A DNA stretch of 21,830 nt from Baffinella frigidus (taxonomy: Eukaryota; Cryptophyceae; Cryptomonadales; Baffinellaceae), in NCBI GenBank assembly GCA_026770585.1, contig MU646535.1, positions 23,755 through 45,584 on the forward strand. The letters run 5' to 3'. Below the pieces are notes generated by a model that had not been told where the DNA came from, made no database searches, and saw nothing but the letters and a program-made list of their open reading frames with translations. The translations under genes were made by a program, and so were the position numbers. Within the stretch, counting starts at the first letter, position 1. Each line of letters begins with the position of its first letter. Shown here one piece after another: positions 413-19,800 of the stretch.

Positions 413-599
413 CCCCCCCCCCTCGCAGGTCGAGCCGCATTCGGTTGCGGCCCGTCGGGTTGACTCATCGTTTTCACGCCAACAGCTGACGTATTTGTAC
501 CACACACCAGGGACATCAACTTCCGGTCTCCTCATTTTGAGGAGACCAGATTGACCCAGCCCCCCCCCCTCGCAGGTCGAGCCGCATTCGGTTGCGGCC
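413..599 (+). repeat. Perfect 40-nt direct repeat flanking a family A element
   Basis: The 40 nt at 413-452 (ten Cs, 'tcgcag' and the first 24 nt of exon 1) recur exactly at 560-599. The 107 nt between contain a family A core ('gtatttgtaccacacacc', 'catcaact') and a short hairpin at 526-547. Perfect identity suggests a recent event. The inner copy lies directly against the functional exon. Confidence 0.85.
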
Positions 600-698
600 A
601 TGTGCAAGCGCGCCCCGCTCAAGGAATACGACTTCGAGATCGACGGCTTGGATCAAAGGCTCTGCGTGGGCTTCTCGGAGGAGTTGCACACACGCAAG
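576..698 (+). CDS. Gene 1 exon 1 (unknown domain), with duplicated edges
   Basis: This exon lies between acceptor 'ctcgcag' and donor 'gtctct' and encodes 41 codons, including DFEIDGLDQRLCVGFSEEL. It is in phase 0 at both ends. The first methionine in frame is at 600-602 and could be the start if the exon's first 24 nt are untranslated. Both edges occur again nearby: the acceptor plus first 24 exon nt at 413-452, and the last 54 nt plus donor, diverged, at 824-879. I do not recognise the protein family. Coding status rests on the open frame, splice sites, phase match to the next exon, and mostly silent third-position differences between the exon and its 3' copy. Confidence 0.6.
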
Positions 699-3600
699 GT
701 CTCTACGCGGGAGGGCTAGAAGGCGTTTTACGCTCCAGGGTCTTTCTATTATTTGTGCTGCGAACCATCCACTTGTGATGATGCAGCTTCATTTCTGAGT
801 GAAAATAATTGACTTTGACTTCAGATGGACAGCAGAGGCTCCTCGTGGGGTTCTCAGAGGAATTGCACAACCGCAAGGTCCGCGCGCCCCCCGAAACGGT
901 CAACCAATTGTGAGGTTGTTCTGGTAGAGCTATTTCGGTACAACTTGGCCGCCTCCGACGTCGAAATTTTCCGACCTGGAGAGTTCAGTAAGGTTGTGAA
1001 GGATTTGTGGCACAAATTGAAATCTCCATGTCGGCAATTCGGCCAAATCGAGAACTGCCAAGTCCCATCGGAATAGCTCTACTAATCCTGCCCGATTTAG
1101 TTACCGTCTCTGTACAAAGCCTGTCCGGTACTGTCAGCAGACGTGGGGCTTTCAGGTCTTGTTCTTGTTCTTCTCCTCCTCCGTCTTCTTCTTCTTCCTC
1201 TTCTTCTTCGTCTTCTTCTTCTTCTTCTTCTTCTTCTTCTTCTTCTTCGCCAGGGGGGTCGAAACATCCACTTTTGACATCTTTCAAGGGAAACCCCTAG
1301 GATTCTTAAGTCAACAACGCCAGATCTGACGTGGATAAGGCGTCGGTTTCCCTCGATCATTCTGGCGTGGCAGTCTATTCGGGCCCGCCAATTCGGTGCG
1401 CCCGGGCTCTTACCCGCTCCAAAGTTGGCGGATTTGCACCGTGAAGCAAGCGTGTCACCTTGAGGATAGTCGGTCAACCCGAGTGAGGCGAGTCAGCAGT
1501 CGCGACGTGGAAGCACTGTCTCGCGCGCGTTAACTCCACGGTCTCGCCCCCGACCCTTCTTCCTCTTCTTCTTCTTCTTCTTCTTGTTCTTCTGGTTCTT
1601 CTGGTTCTTCTTCTCCTTCTTCTTCTTCTTCTCCTTCTTCTTCTTCTTCTTCTGGTTCTTCTTCTGCCTCATCTTCTTCTCTTTCTTCTGGTTCTTCTTG
1701 TTCTTCTTCTCTTTCTGCTGTTTCTTCTTCTCCTTCTTCTTGTTCTGCTACTACTTCGTTATCACCCTCGAGCCTCAAGTTGATCGACCGAATAGGCTAT
1801 GAGCATTATGCCAGACCCGCCTCCTCCCCGCGGGATGTTCGCTTATCTTACTCGCAGGGGATAACACTACCAGGGTTTGTACCAGACATCCTTTCGATGG
1901 ACGCCTTGCGAAATGGAATCCATTGTGGCCCAGGACTAAGTTGGTGCACTCTCAGGCCTGCGGGATCTTTGCCTACTTCGACAAAGGCAACGACCTCCCG
2001 CCAAGGCTCATCCTGAGCCTGACGCGCATGCGTGTGTCGAGCGTGTTGAGCGCCTCCAACGACACCAACCACGGGCTCGTGGCGTACGCGTTGGTCCGCG
2101 GCTGCAAACCCGACAACGGTAACTTCCGGCACCTACCTAGGTAGAGCGGTTTTTGCATCTGTTGGCTATGAAAACAATCAAACAAAGTCAAATTTTGACG
2201 GTTTAGTACCAGTTCAGTAACAGGTTGAGTACCAGGTTGATATCAACTTTTGCCATCGGTTCATTCTTTACAGTGGCCAACAGATGCGAAAACCGCTCTA
2301 ACTCTCTGTCAGATCGATTTGGTCTCACCAGTTTGGCAAAGCCGGGCCCCTTTTCGCTTCAAAGGTGACGGAGTTGGACCACACCCCCATTCTGTCAACC
2401 TGAGAAGAGTCCGTCAACCCGACTGAGGCAGACCTAGGGGCGCCGGAGCCCCGATCTAGGCGCGTTCACGCGGCTGACGTGCGTAACTCTGCAGAGTGCC
2501 CCCCCTCTAACTCTGCAGAGTTAGGGGGCGAAGCATGATACCGCCGCACGCCAACGATGATTCAAATATTAGTCGCTGCCGAGAGGTCTTGATGCACATC
2601 TGTTTGAAACCTTACACGGATTGACCGAACGTAAGCCCTAAACCATAAACCCTGAACCATATAAACCCCAAACCCTAAACCCTAAACCATAGAAACCCTC
2701 AACCCTCAACCCTCAACCCTAAACCCTAAACCCTAAAATCCCTAATCCCTAAAATCCCTAAACCCTAAACCCTAAACCCTAAACCCTAAACCCTAAACCC
2801 TAAACAGGAAAGCAAACCTTCGGAGGCTGCGTCGACGGAAACTCGGCGTACAGCGTCTCTTTCACAGAACTGCAGAATGCGTGGAGCGAGCGGCTCACCG
2901 AGTACTACCACGACACGGATTTCAAGAAAGTGCGCGACGATTTCTCTCAGGCACGTCCACAAGTCCTAGACAGCCTCCACCAAATTAGAACGTGGACTAG
3001 GATTTTCCGATCTCTTCAATCTGCACACAGGGCGTGGGTTGCCATGGCGTCTATATCCTAAACCCTGCACAGACCCTAAACCGTAAACCCTACACCCGTC
3101 AAAACGCATCAACTTTGTTGGCGACCAAAAGGCCTGGTCGCTTGCCGATCGAAATTTTGTTTGTCCTCGCTGCGTGTCGTTGCATCCTGTTCCAAAGCCA
3201 CCGGCGTTTGCAGCGCCGAGTTTATGATTTTGGGAGGCTTTTGGAACGGACTTCACAGTTTTTTTTGCACCCTGAACCTGAATGGTGGCACCCTCAAGCA
3301 GGCGCAGGCGGACCTTGTATTCAAGAACATCTGCCAGGGCGGGATCTTCTGGGCCAAGTGGGGCATGAGCCCCGCTTGGCCCTCCTGTGTCCATGACCGC
3401 TGGAACCGAGAGATCTTGCGGGACATTGGGGCCCCCCAGTTCTTCGAGCAGTCCAGATGGGCGGGGGGGGAAAAGACGTTCCCGCGCGACGCTCACCCGG
3501 GGAACATCCTGGTCAAGTGCTACGAGACTAACGAACTCCTCTGGTGCAAGCCCACTGACCTGATCGACTGGAACTCTGAGGAGGGGGAGAGACTCCGCCG

Positions 3601-6600
3601 CCAGAAAGTCCCGGACCAGTACAAGAAAGCGCTCACCGCCGCAGTTGCCCTGGCGGATGCGGACGCGACAACAGGCTACGCAAAGGACAACTTCGTCGCG
3701 GTGAGGCGCTGCTGGGATTGCAACGCCATGCGGAACTGGCAGGTCCCCCCCCCATCCTCAGGGGTGGTCGCGGGCGAGGGCCCTCCCATCTCACCTCACG
3801 CTCGTGGCTCGTTGCGGTCGTGTTTGCCGATTTATTGATACCCGCTTTTCTCCCAGGGCATCGAGGGCGATCAGCTCTGCGGCGACTGGCACTGTGACGA
3901 GGGTTTCCTCAACACGGACGGCGATACGGTGCTCCCAAACCCTGTCCTACGACGCCCTAAACCCTGACACACACCCTAAACCCTGCCCACACCCCTAAAC
4001 CCTGTGCTTGACCCTAAACCCTGTCCTAAGCCGTCACCAGACAGCTGTTTGGTGATCTGGTGTCCTCCCGAACCTAGAGCCAATCTGGTAGGACTTGGCC
4101 AAAGCGAACTTCGAAGTTGCAAGATTGCGAACTTCTAGATGGACCCGTTTGGACATGTAGTGTTTTAAATTCAAATTTTGCAGTACAATCATGGTGTTTA
4201 CTAATAATTTCGGTCCATCGAGAAGTTCGCAATCTTGCAAGTTCGAAGTTCGCGCTGGCCAAGTCCTACCAGATTGGCTCTAGCTCTCAAGCGATGTTTT
4301 GTCACGGTTCGGTGAAACTGGGCTCTCTTTCTCCCCAAAGTCCGAGCCATGTTGCTGCCTCCTCACCGTAGTGGACCGTTGAAACGGTCCGGTGGTTGCA
4401 GGGCGGCCTCAGTGAGGCTCTGCGACTTATTCTCAAGTTGTCAACCGGGGCTTGTGGTACAAAATCCGTCAACTTTGGACACACTTGTGCAGAGAAGCTT
4501 CTCTGAATGTCCAAAGTCGACAGAAAATGTGCCAAATCCATGAACCTTTGAACCGGTGGATTCAGCAGTAGTCTGACAAAGGTCTTACCAGTCGTTTAAT
4601 TTGCCTGGTCGTAAGTCGCTCTGACTTTGCCAGGAGCCTCAAAACGCTTCTGGGCGAAGCCTGGGTTGAACGGCCCTGCAGGTGTACGGCTGCCTCATGC
4701 GTCTGGTTTTGAGTCGCTCTGGTGTCTTGCGCACCATGAAACGTGTTTGGCCAAACACGTTTGGTCAAACATGAAGCGAAGCCTGAGTACCGTCCCCCCT
4801 CAGGAGCACGGCTGTCTCGCTGATGCGAGACACGGAAAGGGCCAGAGCGGGCCCATCGTCTCCTGGAGTGGAGCGCCTGTCAGCGGTCCGAAACCCTAAA
4901 CCCTACACCCCAAACCTCAAACCCTTCCTTAAACTCTGAACCCTAAACCCTCAACCAGATCGGATGCACGGCTTCCTGGAACAGCTGCGGGCCAAAAGCC
5001 TGTACTTGACCGACAAAATCGAAAATGTTAAGCCGCTGCGGAAACAAGGCTCGTTCGGCAAGATCTTCACGTGAGCAGGCTTGCCCTCGACTGAATAGTG
5101 GGGGAATTCCCTCCTGCAAAATCTCGGACATGCCACTCGAGACTAGAAATGTGACTATTTTAAAAGTTTCAACCTTACATGTCCTTTACAAGTGGACCGA
5201 TGCGTAGTAATTTTTACAAAAGTATCTGGGGTTGGTCACGTAGCTGAAGGAATTCCCCCAGCTACGTGACCAAACCCGCCCGTGACTCGTACAAATGTTT
5301 ACAACCCCACATTTGAAATGCTCCCCTTTCCAGCCTCGAGTGGTGTGACTAGATACTGGGAAAGTTCCCTACTGCGATTTCCCGGGTGTGTTTCGACCAG
5401 GCTGAACACAACCGTACGTCCCTCCTTTTTCGAGCCTCATCGCCTGGGGCGGCAGGTGGGACGCGAGCATCCTCGCCCTAGGTCTACAATAGCCCAACGC
5501 CGTATGCTGATTACACTGAAATGTTTGACAGGGGGACGTGCCGCACGAGCACGTACGCCATAAAGGTCGTTGAGCTGCACAACGACACCGCGAAGGAACA
5601 CCTGTACAAGGTCTAGCTCTACCCCAGTCTGGTTGACGAATCGTTTTCGTACCAAACGTTGAAGGATTTGCTCCACAAAACATGGAAATGGCGGAAGAAC
5701 CTCCTATACAAGGTTTGACTAGTCAAACCAATAGTCAAAGGTTTTACTGGTTTGACTAGTCAAATAAGGCCTTCCGAGAAGGCCCTTGTTGGTGGACACC
5801 AGCGAGGGCACCAGGTGTACCAGCTCTGCCTCAGTCGATTTGACCGACAATTCTCGTGTTGGCATTTTTGGTCTATGGTGCACCCAGTCTGCAAGCAGTC
5901 ACTCTCCTCACGCGTTTGCCCCTCTTTCTGATCTTCTGGGCGAATCTCTCTTGGAGCTCCTCTCTCTGAAACATTGGTATATTTCTCGGGGGCAGACCTT
6001 TCCAACACCGGAAAAATGCCTTCCCCGCCCTCGGTCTCTTCCAAATGAGACTGCCCAGGTGCCCGGGGTCATAACGCACCCGCCGGCAGGCTCTTGAGCG
6101 CCCGCGTGACCGGTCACGCGGACGCCGAAGCCAGACGGTCGGTCGTGACTGCCTTGTCATGTTCCGCCCATGGCCGGCGCCAGACCTGGGCCCAGGTGCC
6201 CGGGGTCATAACGCACTGCTTCCGACGATGGTGCTCAATTTGGTGACGGCTGGTCCTGGTTTGAGACTCCTGACCCTGGTGAGCCAACCGTCTGACGGGG
6301 ACCTCGGTGTATCAAGGAGAATGGGATGAGGTGCAGTGTCGAGTAGAACACAGTGAGTGGTGCAGTAAACTTCGTGGTATAGTTGAGAGGAGGGAGGGAG
6401 GGTGAGGGCACAGTCCCCGCTTCACCACACCGAGTCTCGCCGGGCCATGTGCCTGTGCGCCTCCGTGCATGCGGTGCGGTGGTGCTTTGGTGCTTTGTAT
6501 TACACTCAACTTCGCCTCTCACTCCTACCCCACCACCACTCAGAAGGCTTGAGGGAACCCGCAACTCTAAATTTAGGATCCCTTTCTTCGGATTGTGCCG

Positions 6601-9600
6601 GGAATGGAAACGTTGCGTTTTTTACATAAAAGGGCAAAACTTGGCGAGATTGATCGAAATTATCGAAAATAACCCAAATTTGAATTCTTTCTCCGAAATG
6701 AAGACACGCATTTAAAAGGACGTAGATCTGTTCGTGTCCGGGTGCGGTACACCTGCTGGTGTACTCACAAACTAGGCATTGGGACTCATAACCTGGGTAC
6801 GGCAGGAGCTCCTGGCGGCGTTTGAGATTGTCAACAGGCACACCAACATCCTCAACTACTACTACGTCACCAACCAGCAGGTTGTAGCGCGCTGTCTCCT
6901 TCTTTTTGGGCTCACCAGTTTGGGGAGACCGGGCTCTGTTCCGCCCCAACGTCGACGGATTTGTACCACACACCCAGCGTCAACTTGAGAATATTCCGCC
7001 AATCCGGCGGAGACAGAGCGAGAGTTTCACTGCTGGCAGTGAAGAGAGATTGATAATTTATTGCCAAACAACCAGCGTCAGCGCCGCACATGCTACGCAT
7101 CGTGCCACTTACTGTACCCCGTGTCGGCCGCTCATACGAGCATTTTCCGGATGGATTCTAACTCCACCTCCTACCCTTTTCTCGATTTGTTGCCCCTTTC
7201 GTCTCGCCGCGCCCGCCTTCCCGCAGCTGCTGGCAGTGAAAACAATGGACGGCCGCATCGTTCTCCACTGCACACTACACCTTGCCATCGTAAGCGTGCA
7301 CTCCCAAACTCATAACCTGGGCAAGACAGGAGCATCTGAATCCTCCTACAACCTAAACCCTAAACCCTAAACCCTAGACCCTAAACCCTAAACCCTAAAC
7401 CCTAAACCCTAAACCCTAAACCCTAAACCCTAAACCCTAAACCCTAAACCTTACACCCTGAACTACAGATGGGCGAGTCAAAGGACTCTCTCGGCATCGT
7501 CATGGAGCTGGTCTAAACCCGAAAACCGAAACTCTCAACCGTAAACCCTAAACGAACTAAAGCCTAAACGCTGAACCCTGACCATTAATCATCAACCATC
7601 AACCATCAACCATCAACCATCAACCATCAACCCTAAACGCCAAGCCTCGAATCATAAACCCTAAACCCTAAACCCTAAACCCTAAACTCTAAACCCTGGA
7701 CCCTAAACCCTAAACCCTAAACCCGGATCCCTAAACGAACGAACCCCTAAACACTAAACCCGAAAACCGAAACCCTAAACCCTAAACCATAGACCCTAAA
7801 CCCAAAGCAAACCCCTTCCGAGCGTGATTCAATCATTGTCTATGCCTTTCAGCACAGCTTTTGCACTGCGGTGGTTCTTGCTTCGTATCTCACTGAACGT
7901 CCAGTGGCGACGTGATTGCCAAACGGAGTCAGGGAATAGTCCCGTTGTGGGTTTCTCGCTCGCGTTTTGAGTGTTTCCCCCCTCTTGTGTTGAGCAGATA
8001 AAGTGGGATTAAAGTGGGAGTTGACTCCCGCGCATTAAAGTGGGAGTTGACTCCCGCGCATTCCCTAATAGGCCTCAGACGGGACGGTTCCGCTGAATAA
8101 TAACCCGAGCTCGGGGTCGGTTCAGATGAGGTGGAACCTTTATCCGGAGAAACCTATTTTTCTTTCATTTGATGGCAATCAAAATTGCTACACAGATTCT
8201 TTTACATTACCAATAAGAACGAATTGTGTAGTAATTTTCGTTGCCATCAAATGAAAGAAAAATAGGTTTCCCCGGATAAACCTGCACGACGCCGGAGTCT
8301 GGGGAACCTGAGTGATTTCTCGCTTGCTTCAGGGTCCAGGATTTATGGTGTACCTGCGCGCGACCTCGTCCTTAAGCATCGGATTTGTTCAGATGAAGTG
8401 GGACTTGGACGACGCTGCGCACTCGACAGAGGTGGAGGGGGTACGCCGTCGCCCCACCCCGGGGTAGATCCCGTCCATTCCAAATTCGGGGGGAACCAAA
8501 TGGGACACGCCCCTGCCTCCATTCGGCCATCCCATCGCGACTGGAAGTTCAGCTCGTTCAGAACCAAGCCCTGAAAGATTGTGATTGTGTGCGGACCACT
8601 TGAATTTAAAAAAAAAACTTACATGGCATGGGACACGATTGCTCTCTTGAGCATGCAGCCCTTACAGCTCCCCCTGCGAGCAGTGATCAGTTCCCCTCTG
8701 CGATTTGGGGATTAGGTTTCAGGGTTTGAGGGGTTAGGGTTTAGGGTGTATCATCTAGATGATACGCCTTGACTGGGATTTGCGTGAGGGCTGTCCCAGG
8801 CAAGACTGGTAAACCCTCACGGATTTGCGTGAGGGCTGTTCCAGGCAAGATTGGTAGGCAAGATTGGTACCAATCTTGCCTGGATCTCAAACGCCGCCAG
8901 GAGCTCCTGCCCCTTTGCGGCAAGCCGTCGCTTGACCGGACTTTGCTCTGCACCACCCAAGACAATGCGATATTTTGGGTATCCACTGAGTTTCGTCAAA
9001 ATTTCTAAACCCTAAACCATACGCCATAAACCATTAACCATAAACCATAAACCATAAACCATAAACCCGAAATGCAGTGAGTGGATCAGCATCCTTGCGG
9101 GTGTCGCTGATGCGATGGTGTTTCTGCACGACAACACAATCATGCATCGGGATCTTAAACCTGCCAACGTGAGTCCAGACCCTCCTCACATATGCAAGGC
9201 TGACCGTGGCCATGACATAAAATCTGCAAGTGCATCTCGCTTAGAGGATCTGTATGGGAATTGCCTGCACCACAGAAGACCCGGAGGCCCTGGTTTTGAT
9301 CCACTAGCTGCTCTTGAGCGCCCGCGTGACCGGTCACGCGGACGCCGAAGCCAGACGGTCGGTCGTGACTGCCTTGTCAGAACCATTGTTTGGACCACAC
9401 GCCATTGTTTGCAACGTGACCCCTCTTTGCGCCCCAAATATCCGATTTATGTGGCGCTTGAAACATGCAGACACACCTGAACAATGTGAACTACACCTGC
9501 ATGCAAAGGCCCCGAAGTATCTTGTAAGGGGTGCTTCACGCACGTATCTGAAGAGCCTAAACCCTGATTCCTAAACCCTAAACCCTAAACCCTAAACCCT

Positions 9601-12600: not shown

Positions 12601-14090
12601 TTTGTCAACAGCCATTAAACCCAAAGGGGACCCCAGAAACTGGCGGAGTTTCATGACTGTTGACAACCCAGAGCTTTCCCTGGTACTAAGCCTTCCCAGT
12701 TTAGGCACCGCCCGGACGCTATTTCGTTATTTCGTTTTTATTAAACAGGATTGTCGGTGTCAGCCCGTGCCGTCCCCAAGCTAGGACCGGGTCAGCCTTG
12801 CTTCCCAAATAGAGCGTTGGGCTCCGCCCGCTGTGGTTTCAGGGGCCGCTCCCGGTGGTCGCGTTTGACGCGAAACCCCGCCCGGTTTAATTAACGGTCA
12901 TGGGGTTTATGCCAAGATCGCAACACCCACCCTAACATGCCACAGATTAAGCCTAACGTAGCATGCAAAGTGCAACTGGATCAGTGATCTTCCGAAATGG
13001 GGATGTCGAAGGTGCAATGGTGGGGACCTAGATGCAGGCGTCACCTTATGGAATCGATTTCGCAGCCCGTCCATCCAAAGGATCTCCGATACCAATCCCG
13101 GTATTTGAAGCCCCCAGAGCACGAAACGGCCAAGAGCCAAATCTGAGGCATGATCTATTGGGTGACGCGACTAAATCGTAAGATTCTGGAAGGTGCCCGG
13201 GGATGTAGAGGCGGCCAGGCATCTGGCAATGGACTGTGTGTAGTTCGTCCTGTCAAGGCGCCTCTTCGTCCCTTGTACATTGAATCTGATGTTGCATTAA
13301 CTCGTGGGGCTGTCGAAGGTGCACGGGGATCTGGAGGCGATCAGGAATCTGGCGCTGGACTGCGTGCAGGATGACCTTCCGAAGCGGCCCGAGGATTTCA
13401 GGAAGATCATCAAGACCCTTCAGGTTGATCCCACGGGCTCTCCTGAATGGGCCTAGGACCACACAGCGGGCTACGATGGGATTCTCGGTGGCTCCACTAC
13501 CAACAATCGGTTACATGTCTGTAGGACCAGCCTATGTCCTAACGGCAGGGCCTATCGTAGTTACGGTAGTGCATACCGTAGGGTCCTAAGGAGTAAATCC
13601 CTTCGTAGCCTGCTGTGTGGGATGGTGCGGGGTATTTGAGGACCACTATCCACCGGGATTGGAGCCGAACCTGGCTTTCGATCATTTCCGGTGTGCTCTT
13701 CTGAAGATTGGAGCATGATCTGGATTGGCGCTGGTGACTACCGCTCACATGGTCCCGCATAGTCTTACTCACAAATTGCGGTTTTGAATTCAGGATTTGC
13801 ATCCTGGCGAATGGCGCCGAGTGGTACTCACACCACTATTTGGCATGCAGGATATCCAATCTATCAACGCGGCGAAGCTTCAAGACACCCTCCCGCAGGA
13901 CCCACTTTCAGACTACATCGCTCGTCATGGACAGAAGGACGAAAAGCTCAAGCTGTGCGCTTTCCTGCCCACGCCCCTTTGCGAAAAGCCTCAAAATCTC
14001 TGCCACGGGCTCCAAACCGACAGTTTTGATCAAGACCCTGCCCCCAAGACACCCAGACGCAACGCGCAAGAATCGATCACTGGAGTGTAG
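576..14090 (+). CDS. Gene 1: 15-exon protein kinase gene with long unrecognised N-terminal region
   Basis: I join exons 576-698, 1956-2118, 2808-2950, 3299-3742, 3857-3928, 4804-4885, 4959-5070, 5532-5610, 6806-6880, 7469-7510, 9082-9168, 10239-10356, 11138-11292, 13319-13423 and 13851-14090. Every junction keeps codon phase, the total is 2040 nt (679 residues plus TAG at 14088-14090), and all introns end in AG. The C-terminal third is a eukaryotic protein kinase domain, predicted to phosphorylate Ser/Thr or Tyr on an unknown substrate. The N-terminal ~370 residues match nothing I recognise with confidence. The true 5' end is unclear: exon 1 may continue upstream, or ATG 600-602 may be the start. 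The donor of the 2808-2950 exon would be GC, and the acceptor at 3299 could instead be 3302. About 20 residues expected between kinase subdomains V and VIa are missing, so a small exon in 7511-9081 was probably not found. The N-terminal and kinase parts could be two genes, but exon 4804-4885 links them in phase. Confidence 0.7.
824..879 (+). pseudogene. Diverged copy of the 3' edge of exon 1 with donor
   Basis: This matches the last 54 nt of exon 1 plus the GT donor. It reads RLLVGFSEELHNRK against RLCVGFSEELHTRK in the exon, with several silent differences. An AG precedes it at 823-824, but using it as a cassette exon would break phase with the exon before, so I treat it as an intronic exon fragment. 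Confidence 0.7.
925..1081 (+). repeat. Foldback element with TAGAGC termini
   Basis: Termini 'gtagagctatttcgg' and 'tcggaatagctctac' are inverted; inner arms are imperfect. It shares the terminal TAGAGC with foldbacks at 2141-2300 and 4074-4282. It lies in the intron between gene 1 exons 1 and 2. Confidence 0.65.
1165..1250 (+). repeat. CTT/CCT microsatellite
   Basis: Pure pyrimidine triplet repeat on the + strand in the long first intron of gene 1. Reverse-strand Glu-rich and Arg-rich frames over it come from the repeat and are not called as genes. Confidence 0.85.
1424..1495 (+). repeat. Family A copy (+)
   Basis: 'gcggatttgcaccgtg', 'gtcaccttgaggatag' and 'ggtcaacccgagtgaggc' align with the other family A copies. 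It lies between two CTT tracts. Confidence 0.55.
1556..1760 (+). repeat. Long interrupted TTC microsatellite
   Basis: About 200 nt of TTC/CTT/TCC steps with G interruptions. Pyrimidine asymmetry makes triplex (H-DNA) formation possible. The Phe-rich forward and Glu-rich reverse frames are compositional. Confidence 0.85.
1862..1930 (+). repeat. Family G dispersed repeat (+ copy)
   Basis: The stretch around 'acatcctttcgatggacg' and 'gcgaaatggaatccatt' matches the reverse complement of 13033-13110 ('gatcctttggatggacgg', 'gcgaaatcgattccata'). It lies just upstream of exon 2. Confidence 0.6.
1956..2118 (+). CDS. Gene 1 exon 2 (unknown domain)
   Basis: This exon runs from acceptor 'actctcag' to donor 'gtaact' and has 54 codons plus one base (phase 0 in, phase 1 out). 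The peptide includes ACGIFAYFDKGNDLPPRLIL and NDTNHGLVAYALVRGCKPDN. Codons are GC-rich at the third position, unlike the flanking intron sequence. The next exon begins with the two bases that complete the split glycine codon. No family was recognised. The intron starting at 2119 carries a hairpin element beginning 22 nt downstream of the donor. Confidence 0.65.
2141..2300 (+). repeat. Foldback element, 25-nt terminal inverted repeats
   Basis: Arms 2141-2166 and 2276-2300 ('tagagcggtttttgcatctg' and its complement) differ at one or two positions. The interior has short direct repeats of 'gagtaccagg' type. It begins 22 nt inside the intron after exon 2. Confidence 0.85.
2326..2440 (+). repeat. 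Family A copy (+)
   Basis: Contains 'tctcaccagtttggcaaagc', 'acggagttggaccacac' and 'gtccgtcaacccgactgagg', aligning with copies at 6905, 11510 and 21362. Confidence 0.7.
2490..2528 (+). repeat. Short palindrome 'taactctgcagagtta'
   Basis: A palindromic 'ctaactctgcagagttag' bounded by C and G runs, plus a nearby partial copy 'taactctgcagagt' at 2486. Function unknown. Confidence 0.6.
2635..2804 (+). repeat. Telomere-type CCCTAAA array abutting exon 3
   Basis: Degenerate, then regular, CCCTAAA repeats end three nt before the 'cag' acceptor of exon 3. The same motif may serve as branch-point-like sequence (CTAAAC). Confidence 0.9.
2808..2950 (+). CDS. Gene 1 exon 3 (unknown domain), likely GC donor
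   Basis: The acceptor 'aaacag' lies directly at the end of a telomere-type CCCTAAA array. The exon (phase 1 in, phase 0 out) encodes a peptide including GKQTFGGCVDGNSAYSVSF and NAWSERLTEYYHDTDFKKVR. The best junction is CAG|gcacgt, a GC-AG intron. The alternative is that the frame simply continues open to a TAA at 3059-3061, which would make this a terminal exon. Phase compatibility with the next exon favours splicing, but only weakly. No family was recognised. Confidence 0.55.
3299..3742 (+). CDS. Gene 1 exon 4: long exon with a kinase-brace-like motif
   Basis: This is the longest exon in the window (148 codons as drawn), ending at donor 'gtcccc'. Phase 0 acceptors are available at 3299 ('ctcaag') and 3302 ('aagcag'). 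About 60 residues in, it shows FPRDAHPGNILVK followed about 15 residues later by DLIDW. The D-x4-N spacing and a following D-W recall the catalytic brace of APH- or ABC1-type kinase-like folds. The rest does not clearly fit either family and the match may be chance. A run of eight Gs at 3473-3480 inside the exon is a possible frameshift site for sequencing or replication. The Trp- and Cys-rich tail includes RRCWDCNAMRNW. Confidence 0.55.
3857..3928 (+). CDS. Gene 1 exon 5, short acidic Cys-containing exon
   Basis: This exon has 24 codons between acceptor 'tcccag' and donor 'gtgctc', phase 0 on both sides. The peptide begins GIEGDQLCGDWHCDEGF and is acidic. It follows a 114-nt intron. The next supported exon is at 4804, after an intron with a short telomere-type array, a long inverted repeat and a family A copy. 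No function is assigned. Confidence 0.5.
3929..4075 (+). repeat. Degenerate telomere-type repeats after exon 5
   Basis: Spaced 'accctaaaccctg' units lie immediately downstream of the donor, to about 4030. The remainder to 4075 has nothing I recognise. Confidence 0.7.
4074..4282 (+). repeat. Foldback element with ~70-nt arms
   Basis: Arms 4074-4144 and 4211-4282 are nearly perfect inverted repeats containing 'ccaatctggtaggacttggc'. About 65 nt of AT-rich loop lies between. Termini begin TAGAGC like two other foldbacks. Confidence 0.9.
4400..4530 (-). repeat. Family A copy (-) and adjoining hairpin
   Basis: 'ctcaagttgtcaaccgggg' and 'ggtacaaaatccgtcaac' place a family A copy on the minus strand. 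An inverted repeat 'ctttggaca'...'tgtccaaag' around 'agagaagcttctct' follows at 4482-4522. Confidence 0.6.
4676..4709 (+). pseudogene. Upstream copy of the 5' edge of exon 6
   Basis: 'gcaggtgtacggctgcctc' resembles the exon 6 start 'tcaggagcacggctgtctc' at 4801. A perfect 24-nt palindrome at 4739-4762 lies between the two. Confidence 0.5.
4739..4762 (+). repeat. Perfect palindrome around TTGGCCAA
   Basis: 'aaacgtgtttgg' followed by its exact complement 'ccaaacacgttt'. Confidence 0.8.
4804..4885 (+). CDS. Gene 1 exon 6, linking exon before kinase domain
   Basis: Acceptor 'ccctcag' and donor 'gtccga' bound 27 codons plus one base (phase 0 in, phase 1 out). The peptide includes EHGCLADARHGKGQSGPIV. 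Its exit phase is what the kinase exon at 4959 needs, which is the main reason to treat the upstream exons and the kinase as one gene. A diverged copy of its acceptor and first ~25 nt sits upstream at about 4676-4704. Confidence 0.5.
4886..4955 (+). repeat. Telomere-type array filling the intron before the kinase loop exon
   Basis: The 73-nt intron between exons 6 and 7 consists almost wholly of degenerate CCCTAAA units, ending 'aaccag' at the acceptor. Confidence 0.85.
4959..13423 (+). CDS. Protein kinase catalytic domain of gene 1 (eight exons)
   Basis: The domain is read in order. Exon 4959-5070 carries the nucleotide-binding loop KQGSFGKIF, with Lys where the first Gly of GxGxFG usually sits. 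Exon 5532-5610 has YAIKVVEL (ATP-anchoring Lys). Exon 6806-6880 has ELLAAFEIVNRHTNIL (helix C and subdomain IV). Exon 7469-7510 has DSLGIVMEL (hinge). Exon 9082-9168 has FLHDNTIMHRDLKPAN (catalytic loop). Exon 10239-10356 has VLLNEQNIPKICDFG (metal-binding DFG) and the activation loop. Exon 11138-11292 has YMAPEL and DVFSFGALCVDIL. Exon 13319-13423 has DDLPKRPEDFRKI (subdomain XI Arg). All catalytic residues are present, so an active kinase is likely. The HRDLKPAN loop favours Ser/Thr specificity; the overall look is TKL- or STE-like, which I cannot settle. Confidence 0.88.
5226..5280 (+). repeat. Short inverted repeat
   Basis: 'ggttggtcacgtagctg' and 'cagctacgtgaccaaacc' flank a 14-nt spacer in the intron 5071-5531, which otherwise shows no recognised content. 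Confidence 0.8.
5611..5770 (+). repeat. Family A-like segment, exon-edge copy and palindrome
   Basis: After exon 5532-5610 come a degenerate family A piece (5630-5675), a copy of the exon's last ~20 nt with donor ('gaacctcctatacaaggt', 5692-5713), then a hairpin of 'gtttgactagtcaaac' units (5712-5765). Confidence 0.6.
6052..6216 (+). repeat. 26-nt direct repeats around a block shared with 9311
   Basis: 'ggtgcccggggtcataacgc' occurs at about 6056 and 6195. Between them is a 69-nt block (6091-6159) repeated identically at 9311-9379, containing the palindrome 'ccgcgtgaccggtcacgcgg'. Confidence 0.85.
6560..6610 (+). repeat. Dispersed repeat shared with gene 2 terminal exon region
   Basis: Around 'ttaggatccctttcttcgga' this resembles 16405-16455, which overlaps the end of the gene 2 coding region and its 3' flank. 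The rest of the intron 5611-6805 holds no recognised feature. Confidence 0.55.
6905..7045 (+). repeat. Family A copy (+), most complete
   Basis: 'gctcaccagtttggggagac', 'gacggatttgtaccacacac', 'gcgtcaacttgagaat' and a degenerate 'ggcggagacagagcgagag' end. It begins 25 nt inside the intron after exon 6806-6880. Confidence 0.75.
7308..7333 (+). pseudogene. Downstream copy of sequence at the 5' edge of exon 6806
   Basis: 26 nt beginning 'actcataacctggg' match 6784-6809, the intron/exon junction of kinase exon 3, with about three mismatches. It sits in the next intron, just before a telomere-type array. Confidence 0.65.
7340..7465 (+). repeat. Telomere-type array abutting the hinge exon
   Basis: Regular CCCTAAA units run to 'gaactacag', the acceptor of the 42-nt exon 7469-7510. 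Confidence 0.9.
7511..7805 (+). repeat. Telomere-type and 'atcaacc' repeats after the hinge exon
   Basis: Degenerate CCCTAAA units start immediately at the donor, with an inner block of about six 'catcaac' units (7590-7632). The 42-nt exon is thus embedded in telomere-type sequence on both sides. Confidence 0.85.
8008..8059 (+). repeat. Tandem 26-nt direct repeat with internal palindrome
   Basis: Two adjacent copies of a unit beginning 'attaaagtgggagttgactc', each containing 'gggagttgactccc'. Confidence 0.85.
8140..8279 (+). mobile_element. MITE with TTATCC termini and 4-nt target duplication
   Basis: Terminal inverted repeats of about 50 nt start TTATCCGG and include 'tttctttcatttgatggc'. 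The element is bordered by 'acct' on both sides (8136-8139, 8280-8283), a likely target-site duplication. The inner ends ('gtagtaattttcgttgc') are shared with the 11.8 kb element. There is no coding capacity; non-autonomous. Confidence 0.8.
8703..8750 (-). repeat. TTTAGGG-orientation telomere-type patch
   Basis: The only patch in the window with G-rich units on the + strand ('ggggttagggtttaggg'). It lies near an inverted fragment of an exon at 8884. Confidence 0.8.
8777..8882 (+). repeat. Direct repeats and hairpin of 'gcaagattggta'
   Basis: A ~34-nt unit ('tttgcgtgagggctgt') occurs twice, followed by 'ggcaagattggtaccaatct', a palindrome. Confidence 0.75.
8884..8911 (-). pseudogene. Inverted exact copy of the start of kinase exon 6806
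   Basis: The reverse complement of this 28-nt stretch equals 6801-6828, the acceptor and first ~23 nt of the exon encoding ELLAAFE. It lies on the opposite strand within a later intron of the same gene. Confidence 0.8.
9003..9068 (+). repeat. Telomere-like array before the catalytic-loop exon
   Basis: 'aaaccataaaccataaac' units end about 10 nt before the acceptor region of exon 9082-9168. Confidence 0.75.
9311..9379 (+). repeat. 69-nt block identical to 6091-6159
   Basis: Begins 'ctcttgagcgcccgcgtgac'. It is in a different intron of gene 1 from its twin, in the same orientation. The rest of 9380-9555 holds nothing recognised. Confidence 0.9.
9556..9680 (+). repeat. Telomere-type array, mid-intron
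   Basis: CCCTAAA units with an inner 'cccctgaa' variant, not adjacent to a splice site I can support. Confidence 0.85.
9728..9838 (+). mobile_element. Degenerate MITE of the 'ttactattactag' group
   Basis: Imperfect inverted arms ('attgcctttcctgtcaac' and 'gttgacagaaaggcatt') flank a centre with 'tttactattactag', a centre also seen at 17745-17765 and 19915-19930. Confidence 0.55.
10094..10118 (+). repeat. Palindrome around AGATCT
   Basis: 'aaaatagccaga' followed by 'tctggctatttt', 36 nt downstream of a region with no recognised feature (9839-10093). Confidence 0.7.
10820..10952 (+). repeat. Inverted repeat 'gagttttctccaacacgcag'
   Basis: Arms about 10822-10849 and 10920-10949 in the intron 10357-11137. 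Nothing else is recognised in 10357-10819. Confidence 0.8.
11391..11412 (+). repeat. AT-rich palindrome
   Basis: 'gagcatttaatttaaatgct' is a near-perfect palindrome in the intron after the APE-motif exon. Confidence 0.7.
11510..11640 (-). repeat. Family A copy (-)
   Basis: 'tgcctcactcagaccgact', 'attctcaagttgacatgctg' and 'ggtacaaatccgtcagctc' match the reverse complement of the 6905 copy. Confidence 0.75.
11718..12003 (+). mobile_element. Family B element carrying a nested hairpin element
   Basis: The outer ends 'ctaattccggcgtcgaccc' and 'gacgccggaattagg' match the family B element at 15214. Inside is a second inverted repeat ('gagaaatacgat' and 'gcaacgaaaattactacac' arms), whose inner arm also occurs at 8228-8244. 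This reads as one element inserted into another. Confidence 0.7.
12245..12331 (+). repeat. 12-nt minisatellite
   Basis: About seven units of 'atggtgtagcta' or 'atggtgtaggt' type. Confidence 0.85.
12412..12561 (+). mobile_element. Family D hairpin MITE, 'gatt' target duplication
   Basis: Terminal inverted repeats begin TTATCTCAGA and extend about 65 nt, including 'gtcaattcccctacaaattt'. 'gatt' borders both ends (12408-12411, 12562-12565). It shares both terminal sequence and interior with the element at 20883-21042. There is no coding capacity. Confidence 0.88.
13033..13110 (-). repeat. Family G dispersed repeat (- copy)
   Basis: Reverse complement matches 1862-1930. The neighbouring 12566-13032 shows no supported exon. 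Confidence 0.6.
13193..13243 (+). pseudogene. Upstream copy of kinase exon 13319, ends in TAG
   Basis: 51 nt aligned to the first 51 nt of exon 13319-13423 at roughly 80% identity, also preceded by 'gaag'. It reads VPGDVEAARHLAMDCV then stop, against VHGDLEAIRNLALDCV. Substitutions are mostly conservative, so it may be a former alternative exon. Confidence 0.75.
13453..13628 (+). mobile_element. Family F inverted-repeat element, copy 1
   Basis: Ends 'ccacacagcgggctacga' and 'tcgtagcctgctgtgtgg' are inverted. The interior holds 'taccgtagggtcctaaggag', matched at 15738 in the second copy. Confidence 0.75.
13851..14090 (+). CDS. Gene 1 terminal exon (kinase C-terminal tail)
   Basis: After acceptor 'ggcatgcag' the frame is open for 79 codons to TAG at 14088-14090. 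Entry phase 0 matches the preceding kinase exon. The tail starts DIQSINAAKLQDTLPQDPL, is hydrophilic, and ends with a basic stretch (PKTPRRNAQ). No domain is visible. It could be a regulatory tail following the kinase core. Confidence 0.65.
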   Translation, partial: DIQSINAAKLQDTLPQDPLSDYIARHGQKDEKLKLCAFLPTPLCEKPQNLCHGLQTDSFDQDPAPKTPRRNAQESITGV

Positions 14091-14409: not shown

Positions 14410-16416
14410 GTACCGTGTGTTGGATTCCGGGGACCTCCGAGTGTTGCGGAGCAAGAGACTCACGGAGCTTCCTCCAGTCAACCCCTACAGCGCGGTCCTT
14501 AAGCCCGAGACCGAGCCCCATTGCTTATCATCCAAACGCTGCACACCCGCATTCTAAACACCCAATATCTAACTCAGCGTTCGAGACCCTCATACCAAAC
14601 CCCGAATGACTGCAATTCCTGATCGCGGAACCGCAAGCTCCAGATCCAGAAAGCCTGATGGAGCACACCGTGAAGGTGGATCGAATGTGGAATACGTGAG
14701 TGTATTCAGATGAATCTGTCAACCAGTACTGCAACAACGTGGGAGTCTCCACTATAGTTTTCGGTTGCTTGACTAAGGGATAAGGTTGTTACGAGAAACG
14801 GAACATGTACAAAATATACAGCATCTATACGCTGTGTGTATAGGCCTTTTCTGGTACACAAGTTATCTCCGAGGTAACGATGCACCGTTGAGCAGGTGAC
14901 GGTGGATCAACACGTGGCCAAGGGCAGGATGCGCACGCGCTTTATCTCGACAACTTGCTCCCCGAAGTGGGCCCTCCACTATCTCCACAAGCAGGTTCGA
15001 TCGTAGATAAGCAGGTTCGATCACAGACCATTCGGTTCTTCGCACACAATGTCTATCTATTTTATTGGTACAAATCTTAACGATTACCAAGGAACAACTG
15101 GAAATTTGAGCATAATTCTGGTCGAAATCCCCTTCAAAGCCCACTGTGTGGCTAACCTACAGGTCTGGAGAAGTCATGTATTTTCACATCCCCTGCAGCA
15201 GTTTAGATCGTTGTTAAGGATGGACGACCTAATTCCGGCTTCAACCCAAATCCGGGATTTCGTATCACCCTACGGTATTGCGTACGGTATCACCCTACGG
15301 CATGCCGGAATTAGGTTGACGCCGGGATTAGGGCGTCCACCCTTAAGCAAGTTACATCGTTGATCTAACCTATCAGGTCTGAGCCTGATAGGCTCAAATC
15401 TAACCTATCTAACCTATCTAACCTATCAGGTCTGAGCCTGATCTAACCTATCAGGTCTGAGCAACTCATGTGTAACGTATCCCCTGAAGCATGCGAGATC
15501 CCGAGTCATACTCCACAACAGCGCTGCTAAAGAAACTGTATGCGTGCGGGAATTGTGTGCAGTGAGTCAGGGGTGCGCAATTCGAGCCCTGCTCCGTTCA
15601 AACATATTAGCCGCGGACCTGTTTTTGACTGGTCGACCTACCACACAGTGGGGTACGAGGGATTCTTGGTGGCTGAGCCACCACGTTTCGATTAGGATAT
15701 GCGTAGAAGCAACCCTATGTCCCTGCGGATGGCCTACCGTAGGGTCCTACGGATTATTCACCTCTGGACTATCTACGAAATCCTTTTGTAGTTCGCTGTG
15801 TGGAGTGGGTGCGGGGTAAGAATCCGAAGTCTGTTGGACATGCCACTCTCAGGGTGGCAGCGAACCGTTGCTTCATTCCGTTTAGATGCTGACTGGCTCT
15901 GCCTGCACAAAACTGCGCTCGCCATAAACGCATTTTCGTTGCCTAAATGTGTTTTATGTCTTGCCCAGTTTTAATCAGTCAGCGCTAGGCTGACACGGAG
16001 CCCTACCACAGTTTCAGACCGGGGGGGGGGTCAGCTACCCGATCGCGGTCATCGATGTGCGGAAGCTCAAGAAGCATCTCGGGGGAATCTACGGCTCGTA
16101 CGACAACGTCCCTGCGGACGTGAAACGCAGTGCGTTGTACGACTGGTGCTACCCCGCCCACCACCCGCTTCGGAGGTTTTGACGTATGGCTTGCCTGCGA
16201 GGAGTTGCCTCTGTGTTCGCTGGGGCGTGTCTTGGCAGTGCAACCAAGTGGCTGCCCACGTAGCTGAGTTGCGGGGCTCGCCCTGAAGACGCTGCATCTT
16301 TCAGGACGGTGCTGGCGCCTGGAGAGTACGGGGTGCGGAACAAGATCGGAGTCCACTTTGGGACCGACGCAATGGTCCTTCCCACTCAAAAGCCCAGAGG
16401 GAGCGCGAAATTCTAA
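14410..16416 (+). CDS. Gene 2: four-exon gene, ADP-ribosyltransferase-fold-like pattern
   Basis: Exons 14410-14494 (YRVLDSGDLRVL), 14896-14994 (HVAKGRMRTRFISTT), 16018-16175 (SYPIAVIDVRKLKKHL) and 16305-16416 (ends in TAA) join with phases 2, 0, 0 and 2 intact. The order YR, then H-V-x-x-G, then a phenylalanine before STT, then A-L-x-Y, then an IAVID strand is like the Arg/Ser-Thr layout of ADP-ribosyltransferase-fold proteins such as DUF7587-type families. The third key acidic residue cannot be assigned; the Glu in PGEYG near the end is a candidate. The third exon includes a run of ten Gs (16021-16030) encoding glycines, which is frame-critical. The first exon is missing: it must end in phase 2. 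A weak candidate is ATG 14238 to donor 14258. Function is inferred only from pattern. Confidence 0.6.
14800..14875 (+). repeat. Family E dispersed repeat, copy 1
   Basis: 'cagcatctatacgctg' and 'tataggccttttctggtac' match 18785-18860. It lies directly upstream of the gene 2 exon at 14896. Confidence 0.7.
15214..15346 (+). mobile_element. Family B element with TTAA at both ends
   Basis: Inverted ends 'ttaaggatggacgacctaat' and the complement of 'attagggcgtccacccttaa' flank a centre rich in 'accctacggtattgcgtacg'. The flanking TTAA on both sides resembles TTAA-target (piggyBac-like) insertion. Confidence 0.7.
15365..15465 (+). repeat. 'ctaacctat' tandem and 'caggtctgagcctg' repeats
   Basis: Three copies of 'aacctatcaggtctgagc' with tandem 'tctaacctat' units between. 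Confidence 0.85.
15637..15808 (+). mobile_element. Family F inverted-repeat element, copy 2
   Basis: Ends 'ccacacagtggggtacga' and 'gtagttcgctgtgtgg'. The interior 'taccgtagggtcctacgga' aligns to copy 1. The remainder of the intron to 16017 shows no recognised feature. Confidence 0.75.
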
Positions 16417-16614
16417 ATCTAGGGTCCTTTTCTTCAGATTGTACCGGGAATGGTCAACCCCCCCCCCGGGATATCCGGGGAGTTAAGTCCATCGTAGCCT
16501 GTTGAGTGGGAACCAAACCCCTGGGCTTTTGCTTATCTCTGAGACGTCAGGCTGTTCTGGCGGACGCAGCGCGAGAACTTCAGAGCTTGGTCGCAGGGCG
16601 CGATACTCGACACC

Positions 16615-16840
16615 CGAAACCCGAAACCCGAAACCCGAAACCCTAGTCTCAAATGCTTGAAGACGGTCTGAACCACCATTCTCAACCCGGGCCGAAAAGA
16701 CCTGCGGGTATCCCGGCTAAGCCCTAAACCCTAAAGACTAAACCCTAAACCCTAAACCCTAAACCCTAAACCCTAAACTCTAAACCCCAAACACTAAACC
16801 CTGAACCCCAAAACTCCAAACCCTAAACCCTCAACCCTTG
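16615..16840 (+). repeat. CCCGAAA then CCCTAAA arrays upstream of gene 3
   Basis: A short 'aacccgaaacccgaa' run (16615-16643) and a long telomere-type array (16720-16838) end directly before ATG 16841. Confidence 0.85.
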
Positions 16841-19800
16841 ATGCAACAACAGGAAGTAACTCTCGGGATGCCTATCCCAATAGACGCCATCACAGACTTC
16901 CTCTGGCTAGGCACCTACGACAAGCCGAAATCCCGCTGCATCGCAAATTTCCTCAAACATGTCTCTCCGAAGCCAGGTTTATCCCACAGAGATCATTGAT
17001 CCAGGAGACTTCCCCGAAATTGGTTCATGGTGTTTCTGAGATGAAGAGATACCCGGCAAACCTCCGGGCTTCTCTCCAGGTTGCACCCCCTCGGGCGAGC
17101 AAGTGAAATGGCCGACGAAAAGTTGGCCGACCTTGGCCAAAGTGGTGTCGTGGCGTCGGGTGGAGGAGTTCTAACCGCGCCAGCAGCCGGGTTTTACTAG
17201 TCGCACGCCGCGCAGCCTTAGAGAGATCTTCATTCTGATTTACCAAGAGGATCGACTGATTTTTGGAACCCATGCTGTCGCCGAGCTGAGGAATGGTACT
17301 GTCTTGAACGCTGCTTAGAAAACTGCAGCGGACTCCGCACGGCCCGATCACATCAAGGTAACTGTTGACGGCTCAGGCAAACTGGAAGTTTCAGAGTGAA
17401 GCGACTCATCCCCGCCCCACTACCTGCTGGGTTTCATCTCAACCCTAACCACCAACCCCTAAACCCCAACCCCTGAACCAGGCAAGTTCTCGTCGTTCAA
17501 AGACTGGAACCACCTCTACGGGCGCCTGACGGACGCCGGGTACCTTCGCCCGAAACCGAACCGCTCTTCTTCTTATCTCACCGCTCCACACCGCGGGCGG
17601 CCAAAAATCCCACACCACTCTCCGGGAACATCGCACCAAACCCAGAAGAACTTATTCTCATTGATCATGCGAGTCCCTGAACCTGATCCGGGAACATGTT
17701 TATTTCAGTTGCTGTTTGGCAATGAAAATTACCACACTTAATGATCATACTAGTAATAGTAAAGAATCTGTGCAATAATGTCCATTACCCAAAAGCAATT
17801 AAGTTAAACATTTTCCCGGATGAAACCCAGGGTCGATGTGGAAGCGGAGCTATTCCAGGAGCTCACGATATTCCCGATCCAAAACAACTCCGACATGAAA
17901 GAGTGCACGCAAAAGCTGGAGTACATCACAAAACACATCGACGCGGACCGGATCATCCTCCCAAACCACCTCCCGTACCAAGCGTACGAGACAAACATGC
18001 AAGGTTTTAAACCTTTAACCCTAAACACTAAACACTGAACACCAAACACTAAACACTAAGCCCGAAGCCCGAAGCCCGAAGCCCTAAACCCTAAACCATA
18101 CACTCTACACCCTAAACCCTAAACCCTGAACCCTGAACCCTAAACCCTAAACCCTAAACCCTAAACCCTAAACCCTAAACCCTAAACCCTAACTCTTAAA
18201 TCAGAAACCCTAAACCCTAAACCCTAAACCTTAAACCCTAAACCCTAAAACCTAAACCCTAAAACCTAAACCCTAAACCCTAAACCCCAAACCAGGCCAC
18301 ACGATGAACCTCTTCCTCGCGGGGCACACGCAGATGGACTTCCGAAACTTATCTGATCCAGAGAAGGGCTTCGCGTTGGTCGTGGGTCTCGGTGACGATG
18401 ATTATTGCAACGTCACTATGGACTTCGGCACGGTGAAGAGGGGCGACACGGTGGTCCAACGCGTCAGCAATGTAACCCGAAACCCCACACCCCAAAACCT
18501 AAACCCTAAAGTGCCGCAAGCTAGCGTCGACCCTCAGCTCGAGTACCTCTGGCGCTTTGCAAATGATTTGAAGTGAAATCAGATTCAATTTGAATCACCG
18601 CTATGTGTTATCGTAAGGGTGAAACTCGCTATCTTAGCCTCGCCGTAGTTGTATCACAGCACAAAGTTCGCCCCTTAGATATTAAACAGGTGTTTCAAAT
18701 TAACCATATTTCATGTGAGATCGCCCGCATCCGCGCCTTGGGAATTCTCACCTTTCCGATGACTTGACCAAGGTTGGTGCCAGGAACAGAATGTGTACTA
18801 AATTTATAGCATCTACACACTTCATGCATAGGCCTTTCCTGGTGCAGAACTTATCCCTTAGTTGAGCGATTTGATACTATTCCACTGCACCGCCGGGGTG
18901 AATGTGCTCAGGGGCTGCTGTCTTTGCCAGGTGAAGGAAGGTATGTGCAGCTATGAGATCACCTGTCCGTCCTCATGGCACGAATTCACACGGCAGCCCA
19001 AAGTCCCTTACACGCGTAAAGTGAATTTTCCGTAAAGCGGAGGCCGTACAATAACTGTACAAAGCCTAGTAGGTTGCAAGCGCAGGTCTCGGGGACGCAC
19101 CGCTGGTTCGCGAACACCTCTCAGAGTAAAGTGACTGACGGTCCATCACCTCACGTTGTAAATCCTGTGGTAATTTACCACCTATCCTGTGGTAATTTAC
19201 CACCTGTAAATCCTGTGGTAATTTACCACGCTTGTCTGGCAGGGACTCGACTACGTGAGCTTACCGACGGGCTACTTCACCTCGCCGTCCTCCCCCGAAA
19301 AGATCGCCAAGTGCCTCATCGCGCTCACCAACCTCATCATCGTCTACTCCAAGCGCGGGGGCAAGGTCTCGCGCTGCCTCACTCGAGTTGACTGTCAGAC
19401 TATTCTCAAGTTGACTGGATGGGCGTGCGGTACAAATCCGTCAACATCTGAGCGGGGAAGAGCCCAAATAGATCGCCTAATTCAAGCGCGGGGACAACTA
19501 CGAGTTGCATGGCCTAGAATTGTAGCAGAGTCCAGAAACGCGTCCATCGAGAAGATTGACGCGTTTCGTGGAGTCCGTGACAGAAATCTCCAACCTCGTC
19601 ATCGCCTACTCCAGGCGCGGGGACAAGGTATGCCCTGGTCCTGCAGGACCTTTAGGATCAGAAAGTTGACGGATCCATACCGCAACCCCGGGCGTCAACT
19701 TGAGAATAGCCCGGAAATGCGTCCTCATGCGTCTGAGGACGCATTTCCGGGCTATCAAGCGCGCCCGTGAACCTTCTAGGACCTAACCTTCTAGGACCTT

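What the first reader, a model, noticed from the sequence alone, without database searches (positions are those of the whole stretch)
413..19627. Recurrent duplication of exon edges, with splice sites, into neighbouring introns
At least seven exons have a second copy of one edge including the AG or GT: 413-452/560-599 (100%), 661-698/840-877, 5590-5612/5692-5713, 4676-4704/4798-4830, 6784-6809/7308-7333, 13193-13243/13319-13369 and 19330-19365/19592-19627. Identity ranges from perfect to about 80%, so the process looks ongoing. Three pairs have a family A element or fragment between the copies. This could reflect intron gain or expansion by segmental duplication around an inserted element.
Basis: partly seen in the sequence, partly recalled or inferred. 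Interest (0 to 1): 0.85.

Follow-up and report, generated by a model that had tools for sequence, protein, structure and literature searches.

The report
Repair scars duplicating exon edges
In one heavily interrupted gene of what is probably a cryptophyte alga, short stretches of DNA, including the ends of several exons, have been copied nearby with other DNA between the copies; the copies are real and mostly decaying, and look like scars of sloppy DNA repair that the gene survives by splicing around them.

Summary
All seven claimed pairs exist. Nearby direct repeats far exceed chance: 21 pairs of score 26 or more within 600 nt, against a mean of 0.45 in 40 shuffles. Duplication is not confined to exon edges: pairs overlap exons about as often as random placement predicts (7 of 18 vs 5.2), but cross an exon edge three times more often (5 of 18 vs 1.6, P=0.018; two of the five share one edge). 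Differences in exonic parts are flat over codon positions (10/9/11), so as a set the intronic copies decay neutrally and are not alternative exons. Two perfect pairs lose similarity at the block ends and enclose an insert; 4605-4826 is a decayed tandem duplication; one edge has a perfect inverted copy 2 kb away. This mixture resembles scars of error-prone repair of staggered breaks. Family A lies between the copies in 4 of 7 claimed pairs (0.77 expected), but six other family A elements lack long flanking repeats. Best reading: repair scars, tolerated at exon edges because a splice site is duplicated too. Genome-wide rates are untested: the genome search did not complete.

The parts
413..452 (+). 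upstream copy of a perfect 40-nt direct repeat, contains CGCAG|GT (AG 427-428)
   Evidence: 40 of 40 identical to 560-599; no similarity beyond the block
453..559 (.). 107-nt insert between the perfect copies; family A-like (minus strand 471-522)
   Evidence: nhmmer E 5.5e-6; 451-516 aligns to 5624-5689 at 73%
560..599 (+). downstream copy, directly before the ATG at 600
654..701 (+). 3' edge of exon E1 with donor AAG|GT (junction 698/699)
   Evidence: 83% to 833-880
833..880 (+). intronic copy of the E1 donor edge, AAG|GT at 877/878
4605..4826 (+). decayed tandem duplication (unit 4605-4702, second unit 4703-4826) that contains the E6 acceptor edge and its copy (AG ends at 4681 and 4803)
   Evidence: global score 156 vs maximum 80 in 300 shuffles
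5590..5612 (+). 3' edge of exon E8 with donor AAG|GT (5610/5611)
   Evidence: score 22, weak on its own
5613..5691 (.). 79-nt insert, homologous to the 453-559 insert; its start 5613-5638 matches the left end of the family A element at 2412-2437 (inverted, 85%)
5692..5714 (+). intronic copy of the E8 donor edge, AAG|GT at 5712/5713
6053..6079 (+). purely intronic perfect 27-nt direct repeat, first copy
   Evidence: 100% to 6190-6216
6080..6189 (.). 110-nt insert holding 6090-6159, a 70-nt exact copy of 9310-9379
6190..6216 (+). second copy of the intronic 27-nt repeat
6784..6809 (+). acceptor edge of exon E9 (CAG|GAGC, 6805/6806)
   Evidence: 23 of 26 identical to 7308-7333
7308..7333 (+). direct copy of the E9 acceptor edge, in the following intron
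8884..8911 (-). inverted perfect copy of the E9 acceptor edge 6801-6828
   Evidence: 28 of 28
8120..8137 (+). probable copy of an acceptor edge (CAG|ATG) at 8387-8404; hairpin element 8139-8280 follows it
   Evidence: 16 of 18, score 26; the exon itself is uncertain
12998..13016 (+). further upstream copy of the E14 acceptor edge 13305-13323 (GAAG|GTGCA)
   Evidence: 18 of 19, score 33
13189..13243 (+). intronic copy of the first 51 nt of exon E14 with its AAG|GT
   Evidence: 82% to 13315-13369
13315..13369 (+). 5' part of exon E14 (acceptor 13318/13319)
   Evidence: exon supported by co-linearity with P0121
19325..19367 (+). 3' edge of exon F9 with donor AAG|GT (19365/19366)
   Evidence: 88% to 19587-19629
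19368..19471 (+). family A element starting directly after the donor GT
   Evidence: 19368-19474 (this copy was one of the model's seven seeds, so the match is by construction); 77% to 11500-11603 in an independent self-comparison
19472..19497 (+). third, partial copy of the F9 edge
   Evidence: 85% to 19339-19364 and 88% to 19601-19626
19587..19629 (+). intronic copy of the F9 donor edge, AAG|GT at 19627/19628

Best explanation
The pairs are scars of short-range duplication made by error-prone repair of staggered breaks. A break with long single-stranded ends is filled in on both sides, which duplicates 20-55 nt. Unrelated or ectopic DNA (fragments of the family A element, a 70-nt palindromic piece, nearby sequence in either orientation) is captured between the ends; sometimes the result is a plain tandem duplication. 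Hits inside exons are mostly purged. Hits in introns, or across an exon edge, survive because the edge duplication also duplicates the splice site, so splicing with the outer site removes insert and spare copy together. The spare copy then decays neutrally. Shown: the pairs, their excess over chance, the inserts, the absence of flank similarity in the two perfect pairs, one tandem case, the inverted copy, neutral decay of the set. Inferred: the staggered-break step, the filler source, the selective filter, and which splice sites are used.
For: Excess of local direct pairs: 21 at score 26 or more vs 0.45 in 40 shuffles; 18 remain after three family or telomere-like pairs are set aside. Perfect pairs 413/560 and 6053/6190 end abruptly and enclose 107- and 110-nt inserts. 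The 6080-6189 insert holds a 70-nt exact copy of 9310-9379. 4605-4826 is a tandem duplication. The E9 edge has one direct and one perfect inverted copy. Differences by codon position are 10/9/11, with 8 synonymous and 17 nonsynonymous changed codons. Pairs overlap exons near the random rate but cross edges in excess (5 of 18 vs 1.6, P 0.018). [quoted passage not shown]
Against: No allele or relative without the inserts was available, so no event was seen as a before/after pair. Two apparent donor-copy distances are 2.1 and 3.2 kb, beyond the 200 bp of the rice cases. For the inserts 702-832 and 13244-13314 no source of score 30 or more was found in the window, apart from the end of the latter. 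The deficit of exon-interior hits is not significant (2 vs 3.9, P 0.22), and two of the five crossing pairs share the E14 edge, so that P value is too favourable. The 6784/7308 copy lies beyond its exon and gains nothing from a duplicated splice site.
Confidence: 0.6

Rival explanations
1. Plain tandem genomic duplication of segments holding AGGT; inserts and divergence came later.
For: 4605-4826 is one (score 156 vs shuffle maximum 80). Weak flank similarity at 13189 upstream (P 0.035) and 19325 downstream (P 0.04); the short intronic pair 8776/8821 also has similar flanks. Tandem genomic duplication is a demonstrated route to introns (PMC3443670, passages).
Against: In the two perfect pairs (413, 6053) similarity should continue beyond the block and does not.
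Confidence: 0.17
2. Family A (and related) elements are introner-like transposons that insert at AG|GT and make unusually long target-site duplications.
For: Family A lies between the copies in 4 of 7 claimed pairs. In two pairs the insert begins with what looks like the element's first bases directly after the exon's GT (5613, 19368; the model hit at 5613-5648 alone is weak, E 0.37). The inserts of the 413 and 5590 pairs are homologous.
Against: Six other family A elements have no long flanking repeat: local flank scores 10-19, against 80, 32 and 22 for the three inside pairs; the 22 does not exceed the best of 13 unrelated hairpins in the same call (23). The 453-559 insert seems to lack the element's left end (read from the sequence). 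At 21361 the element sits between CTAG ends, suggesting a TA duplication. Some earlier introner families have 3-9 bp repeats (PMC9860276, passages).
Confidence: 0.13
3. The copies are tandemly duplicated alternative exons, or remnants of paralogous genes.
For: The 654/833 pair is dominated by third-position changes (1, 2, 5 by codon position; 4 synonymous of 6 changed codons), and its copy is bounded by AG and GT (read from the sequence).
Against: Over all pairs the differences are flat (10/9/11). The 13189 copy ends in an in-frame TAG (sequence, frame read by eye). Copies cover an edge, not a whole exon.
Confidence: 0.05
4. Chance matches or assembly artefact.
For: The scores of the 5590 and 4676 pairs are reached in shuffles.
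Against: No shuffle of 40 gave a pair of score 36 or more within 600 nt; 9 are observed. Copies diverge to many different degrees, which a mis-assembly would not give (inference).
Confidence: 0.03

Closest known systems
Short insertions with tandem or partly tandem duplication in rice (Vaughn and Bennetzen 2014, patch-mediated double-strand break repair; the paper is not held, known here through review PMC7407515, passages)
   Same: duplications next to a break, with or without inserted DNA from ectopic or nearby donors
   Different: here many cases in one gene of a probable cryptophyte, several straddling exon edges, with family A fragments in some inserts; two apparent donors 2-3 kb away
[quoted passage not shown] PMC3443670, passages)
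   Same: insert flanked by direct repeats, splice sites near or inside the repeats
   Different: the repeats are called short there, here 20-55 nt; creation of a new intron is not shown, only enlargement of introns of unknown age
Intron gain by tandem genomic duplication of AGGT segments (PMC3443670, passages)
   Same: both copies carry AG|G or AG|GT, at or within a few bases of the block, in all seven claimed pairs (read from the sequence); 4605-4826 is a tandem duplication
   Different: the two perfect pairs have no similarity beyond the block
Introner elements with target-site duplications (PMC9860276; Amoebophrya, PMC7789003; passages)
   Same: inverted-repeat, non-autonomous-looking elements in introns, some starting at the donor GT
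   Different: long duplications absent around most family A copies; 3-9 bp in some known families, 3-5 nt in Amoebophrya

Membership tests
Repair-born insertion/duplication (staggered break) | insert flanked by direct repeats whose similarity stops at the block | tested here: met
   413/560 and 6053/6190; undecided for the decayed pairs
Repair-born insertion/duplication (staggered break) | inserted DNA traceable to ectopic or nearby donors, either orientation | tested here: inconclusive
   met for the 70-nt exact copy 6090/9310 and the inverted copy 6801/8884, direction of copying unknown; no source of score 30 or more in the window for most of 702-832 and 13244-13314
Repair-born insertion/duplication (staggered break) | empty, unduplicated site in a relative | not testable with these tools
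   genome search unreachable
Tandem genomic duplication | similarity extends over the whole unit, in register | tested here: inconclusive
   met for 4605-4826, not met for 413 and 6053, weak for 13189 and 19325
Introner / MITE with target-site duplication | each element copy flanked by a duplication of fixed type | tested here: not met
   long flanking repeats clear at 2 of 9 family A or A-like elements (scores 80 and 32), doubtful at a third (22, while 13 hairpins reach up to 23); a 2-bp TA duplication was not tested systematically
Mutually exclusive exons | coding constraint on both copies | tested here: not met
   10/9/11 differences by codon position; six pairs examined, five with differences; the 654/833 pair alone leans to third positions

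The most novel reading that the evidence does not exclude
In this lineage, breaks at or near mobile-element ends (family A) are repaired so that exon edges are duplicated together with their splice sites. Each duplicated donor edge makes an intronic AG|GT, a ready-made recursive-splicing (zero-length exon) site, so the same events both enlarge introns without cost and seed new splice sites. The 413/560 pair, which would restore the unduplicated sequence exactly if 429-575 were spliced out, is then an intron caught at birth.
Probability: 0.12. Interest if true: 0.75.

Novelty: new member of a known kind. Interest (0 to 1): 0.42.

Why it matters
How introns grow and arise is an open question, and many recent introns keep no trace of their origin. 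A genome in which duplicated splice edges range from perfect to barely recognisable would let the steps be ordered in time and the selective filter at exon edges be measured directly. The gene also shows that duplicated splice edges need not be alternative exons, a trap for gene annotation.

Tried and rejected
Tested and dropped: (a) telomere-repeat arrays as the inserted matter: flanks of the 16 sense arrays show no duplication, highest local score 17. (b) Long target-site duplication as a general feature of family A: clear at 2 of 9 elements, doubtful at a third. (c) Coding constraint on the copies: flat codon positions, although 654/833 alone leans to third positions. (d) ORF 13851-14090 as an exon: the homologue P0121 passes from E14 directly to 14896. 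The shift test used an earlier list of 44 junctions with this ORF's acceptor, a later-moved F1 donor, and without the F2, F4 and E14b junctions; one search used the corrected list of 47. (e) One degenerate 27-base family A pattern: no exact match in the prokaryote or viral contigs, where records near the window's own genome may be left out; a 17-base pattern gave two viral contigs of 27% and 34% G+C, set aside as chance. (f) Plasmids, window 1-8000, close matches only: none. (g) Third protein search, residues 270-680 of the assembled query: none of 7999 candidates at E 0.001. (h) First protein search: 1135 kinase-like hits, best 120 listed, no close relative. (i) Rfam and tRNA scans: nothing. 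Five pairs were dropped by hand before the counts (hairpin arms, family members, telomere-like): 12419/12527, 20933/21421, 3934/4013, 20898/21016, 21134/21661. In that count 13189/13315 and 12998/13305 share one edge, and 19339/19472, which stops one base short of the junction, counts as exon-interior. The 14670-14682/14896-14908 pair (12 of 13, score 21) touches the E14b acceptor but is at chance level and is not used as evidence.

Full report
WHAT THE WINDOW IS. The window carries a eukaryotic gene that I model as 24 exons. Translations of joined exons match a protein kinase domain (Pfam Pkinase, E 5.8e-31), a PWWP domain (E 1.1e-5) and, below the curated cut-off, a dual-specificity phosphatase (E 5.3e-6). 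Exons E12 to F5 (10239-18003) are co-linear with P0121, a 320-residue protein of the cryptophyte Baffinella frigidus (164 identities in 329 aligned columns, 40 of them gaps; lineage). Kinase and phosphatase parts are therefore probably one gene, and the organism is probably a cryptophyte; both inferences rest on this one relative. The homologue supports several junctions between E12 and F5, including the acceptor at 13319, one of the claimed edges. The donors at 698, 5610 and 19365 and the acceptors at 4804 and 6806 rest on reading frame, GT/AG and domain continuity only. The junctions E3/E4 and E10/E11 do not fit in phase, so an exon is probably missing between 7510 and 9078 and one splice site near 2950 or 3259 is unsure.

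IS IT ABOUT EXON EDGES. With 44 junctions of an earlier gene model, circular shifts give P of 0.02 to 0.30 depending on threshold and distance. With the corrected 47 junctions, independent random placement of the pairs gives edge-crossing counts of 7 of 28 (2.2 expected, P 0.004), 5 of 18 (1.6, P 0.018), 5 of 13 (1.3, P 0.009) and 4 of 9 (1.0, P 0.009) at four thresholds. Two of the five crossing pairs share the E14 edge, so these P values are somewhat too low. Overlap with exons as such is near expectation (P 0.13-0.26), and interior-only overlaps lie below expectation without significance (P 0.14-0.24). The simplest reading is random duplication followed by selection: a hit inside an exon breaks the message, a hit across an edge brings a spare splice site with it. 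A copy in an exon also decays more slowly, which keeps edge pairs visible longer.

WHAT LIES BETWEEN THE COPIES. The perfect pair 413/560 encloses 107 nt related to family A and to the insert of the 5590 pair. The perfect intronic pair 6053/6190 encloses 110 nt with a 70-nt exact copy of 9310-9379. Neither shows similarity outside the block, which excludes a simple tandem duplication for these two. The 19325/19587 pair encloses a family A element starting directly after the donor GT, followed by a third, partial edge copy that shares two variants with the far copy; the edge was therefore probably duplicated twice. The 4676 pair belongs to a tandem duplication 4605-4702/4703-4826. The acceptor edge of E9 has a direct copy past the exon, in the next intron, and a perfect inverted copy at 8884-8911; neither layout is that of a target-site duplication. 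Family A between copies: 4 of 7 claimed pairs against 0.77 expected, or 4 of 14 against 1.4 with seven further local pairs chosen by hand. The other six family A elements examined carry no long flanking repeats (scores 10-19); the three inside pairs score 80, 32 and 22, and 13 hairpins in the same call reach up to 23, so only two of the three stand out.

DO THE COPIES STILL CODE. In exonic parts, differences fall 10, 9 and 11 on codon positions 1, 2 and 3, with 8 synonymous and 17 nonsynonymous changed codons and 18 transitions to 12 transversions (six pairs, one without differences). That is neutral decay for the set. The 654/833 pair leans to third positions (1, 2, 5) and is the one place where an alternative exon remains possible.

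MECHANISM. The mixture of abrupt duplications with inserts, tandem duplication, ectopic copies and inverted copies fits error-prone repair of staggered breaks. [quoted passage not shown] Fill-in of 3' overhangs followed by end-joining makes small tandem duplications in human and mouse cells (PMC8355091, abstract and outline). Direct repeats at or near the borders were reported for all 213 introns of one survey, 4 to 30 bp long (PMC11782384, abstract). The family A association leaves room for element-induced breaks. The staggered-break step is inference.

LIMITS. One window, one distant relative, no RNA, no empty sites. Literature was searched; the one search worded for partial exon or splice-site duplication listed two papers, neither on this by title and abstract start, and no claim is made that the phenomenon is unpublished.

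Noticed in passing
2632-2820, 4888-4956, 7350-7463, 9004-9072, 16717-16839, 17438-17479, 18079-18293, 20330-20532: Telomere-like CCCTAAA arrays, 16 sense runs against 4 antisense-like runs; these eight abut or overlap the 3' splice site (within 13 nt) of 8 of 23 acceptors examined, as if the telomeric repeat supplied branch point and pyrimidine tract.
   Followed up: partly
6090-6159 and 9310-9379: A 70-nt partly palindromic sequence present twice with no difference, 3.2 kb apart.
   Followed up: partly
2139-2303, 4074-4283, 8139-8280, 12409-12564, 20883-21042: Long hairpins (arms 79-96% complementary) whose outer ends read TA...TA by eye, like mariner-type miniature elements (recalled type); the last starts at the sixth base of the intron after F11.
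   Followed up: partly
13851-14090: Open frame of 79 codons plus stop with an acceptor-like start, skipped by the homologous protein; possible pseudo-exon or alternative end.
   Followed up: partly
2950: Exon E3 appears to end at a GC donor (CAG|GCACGT); the phase to E4 does not fit, so this junction is unsure.
   Followed up: no
4741-4760: Perfect palindrome ACGTGTTTGGCCAAACACGT inside the second unit of the 4605-4826 tandem duplication.
   Followed up: no
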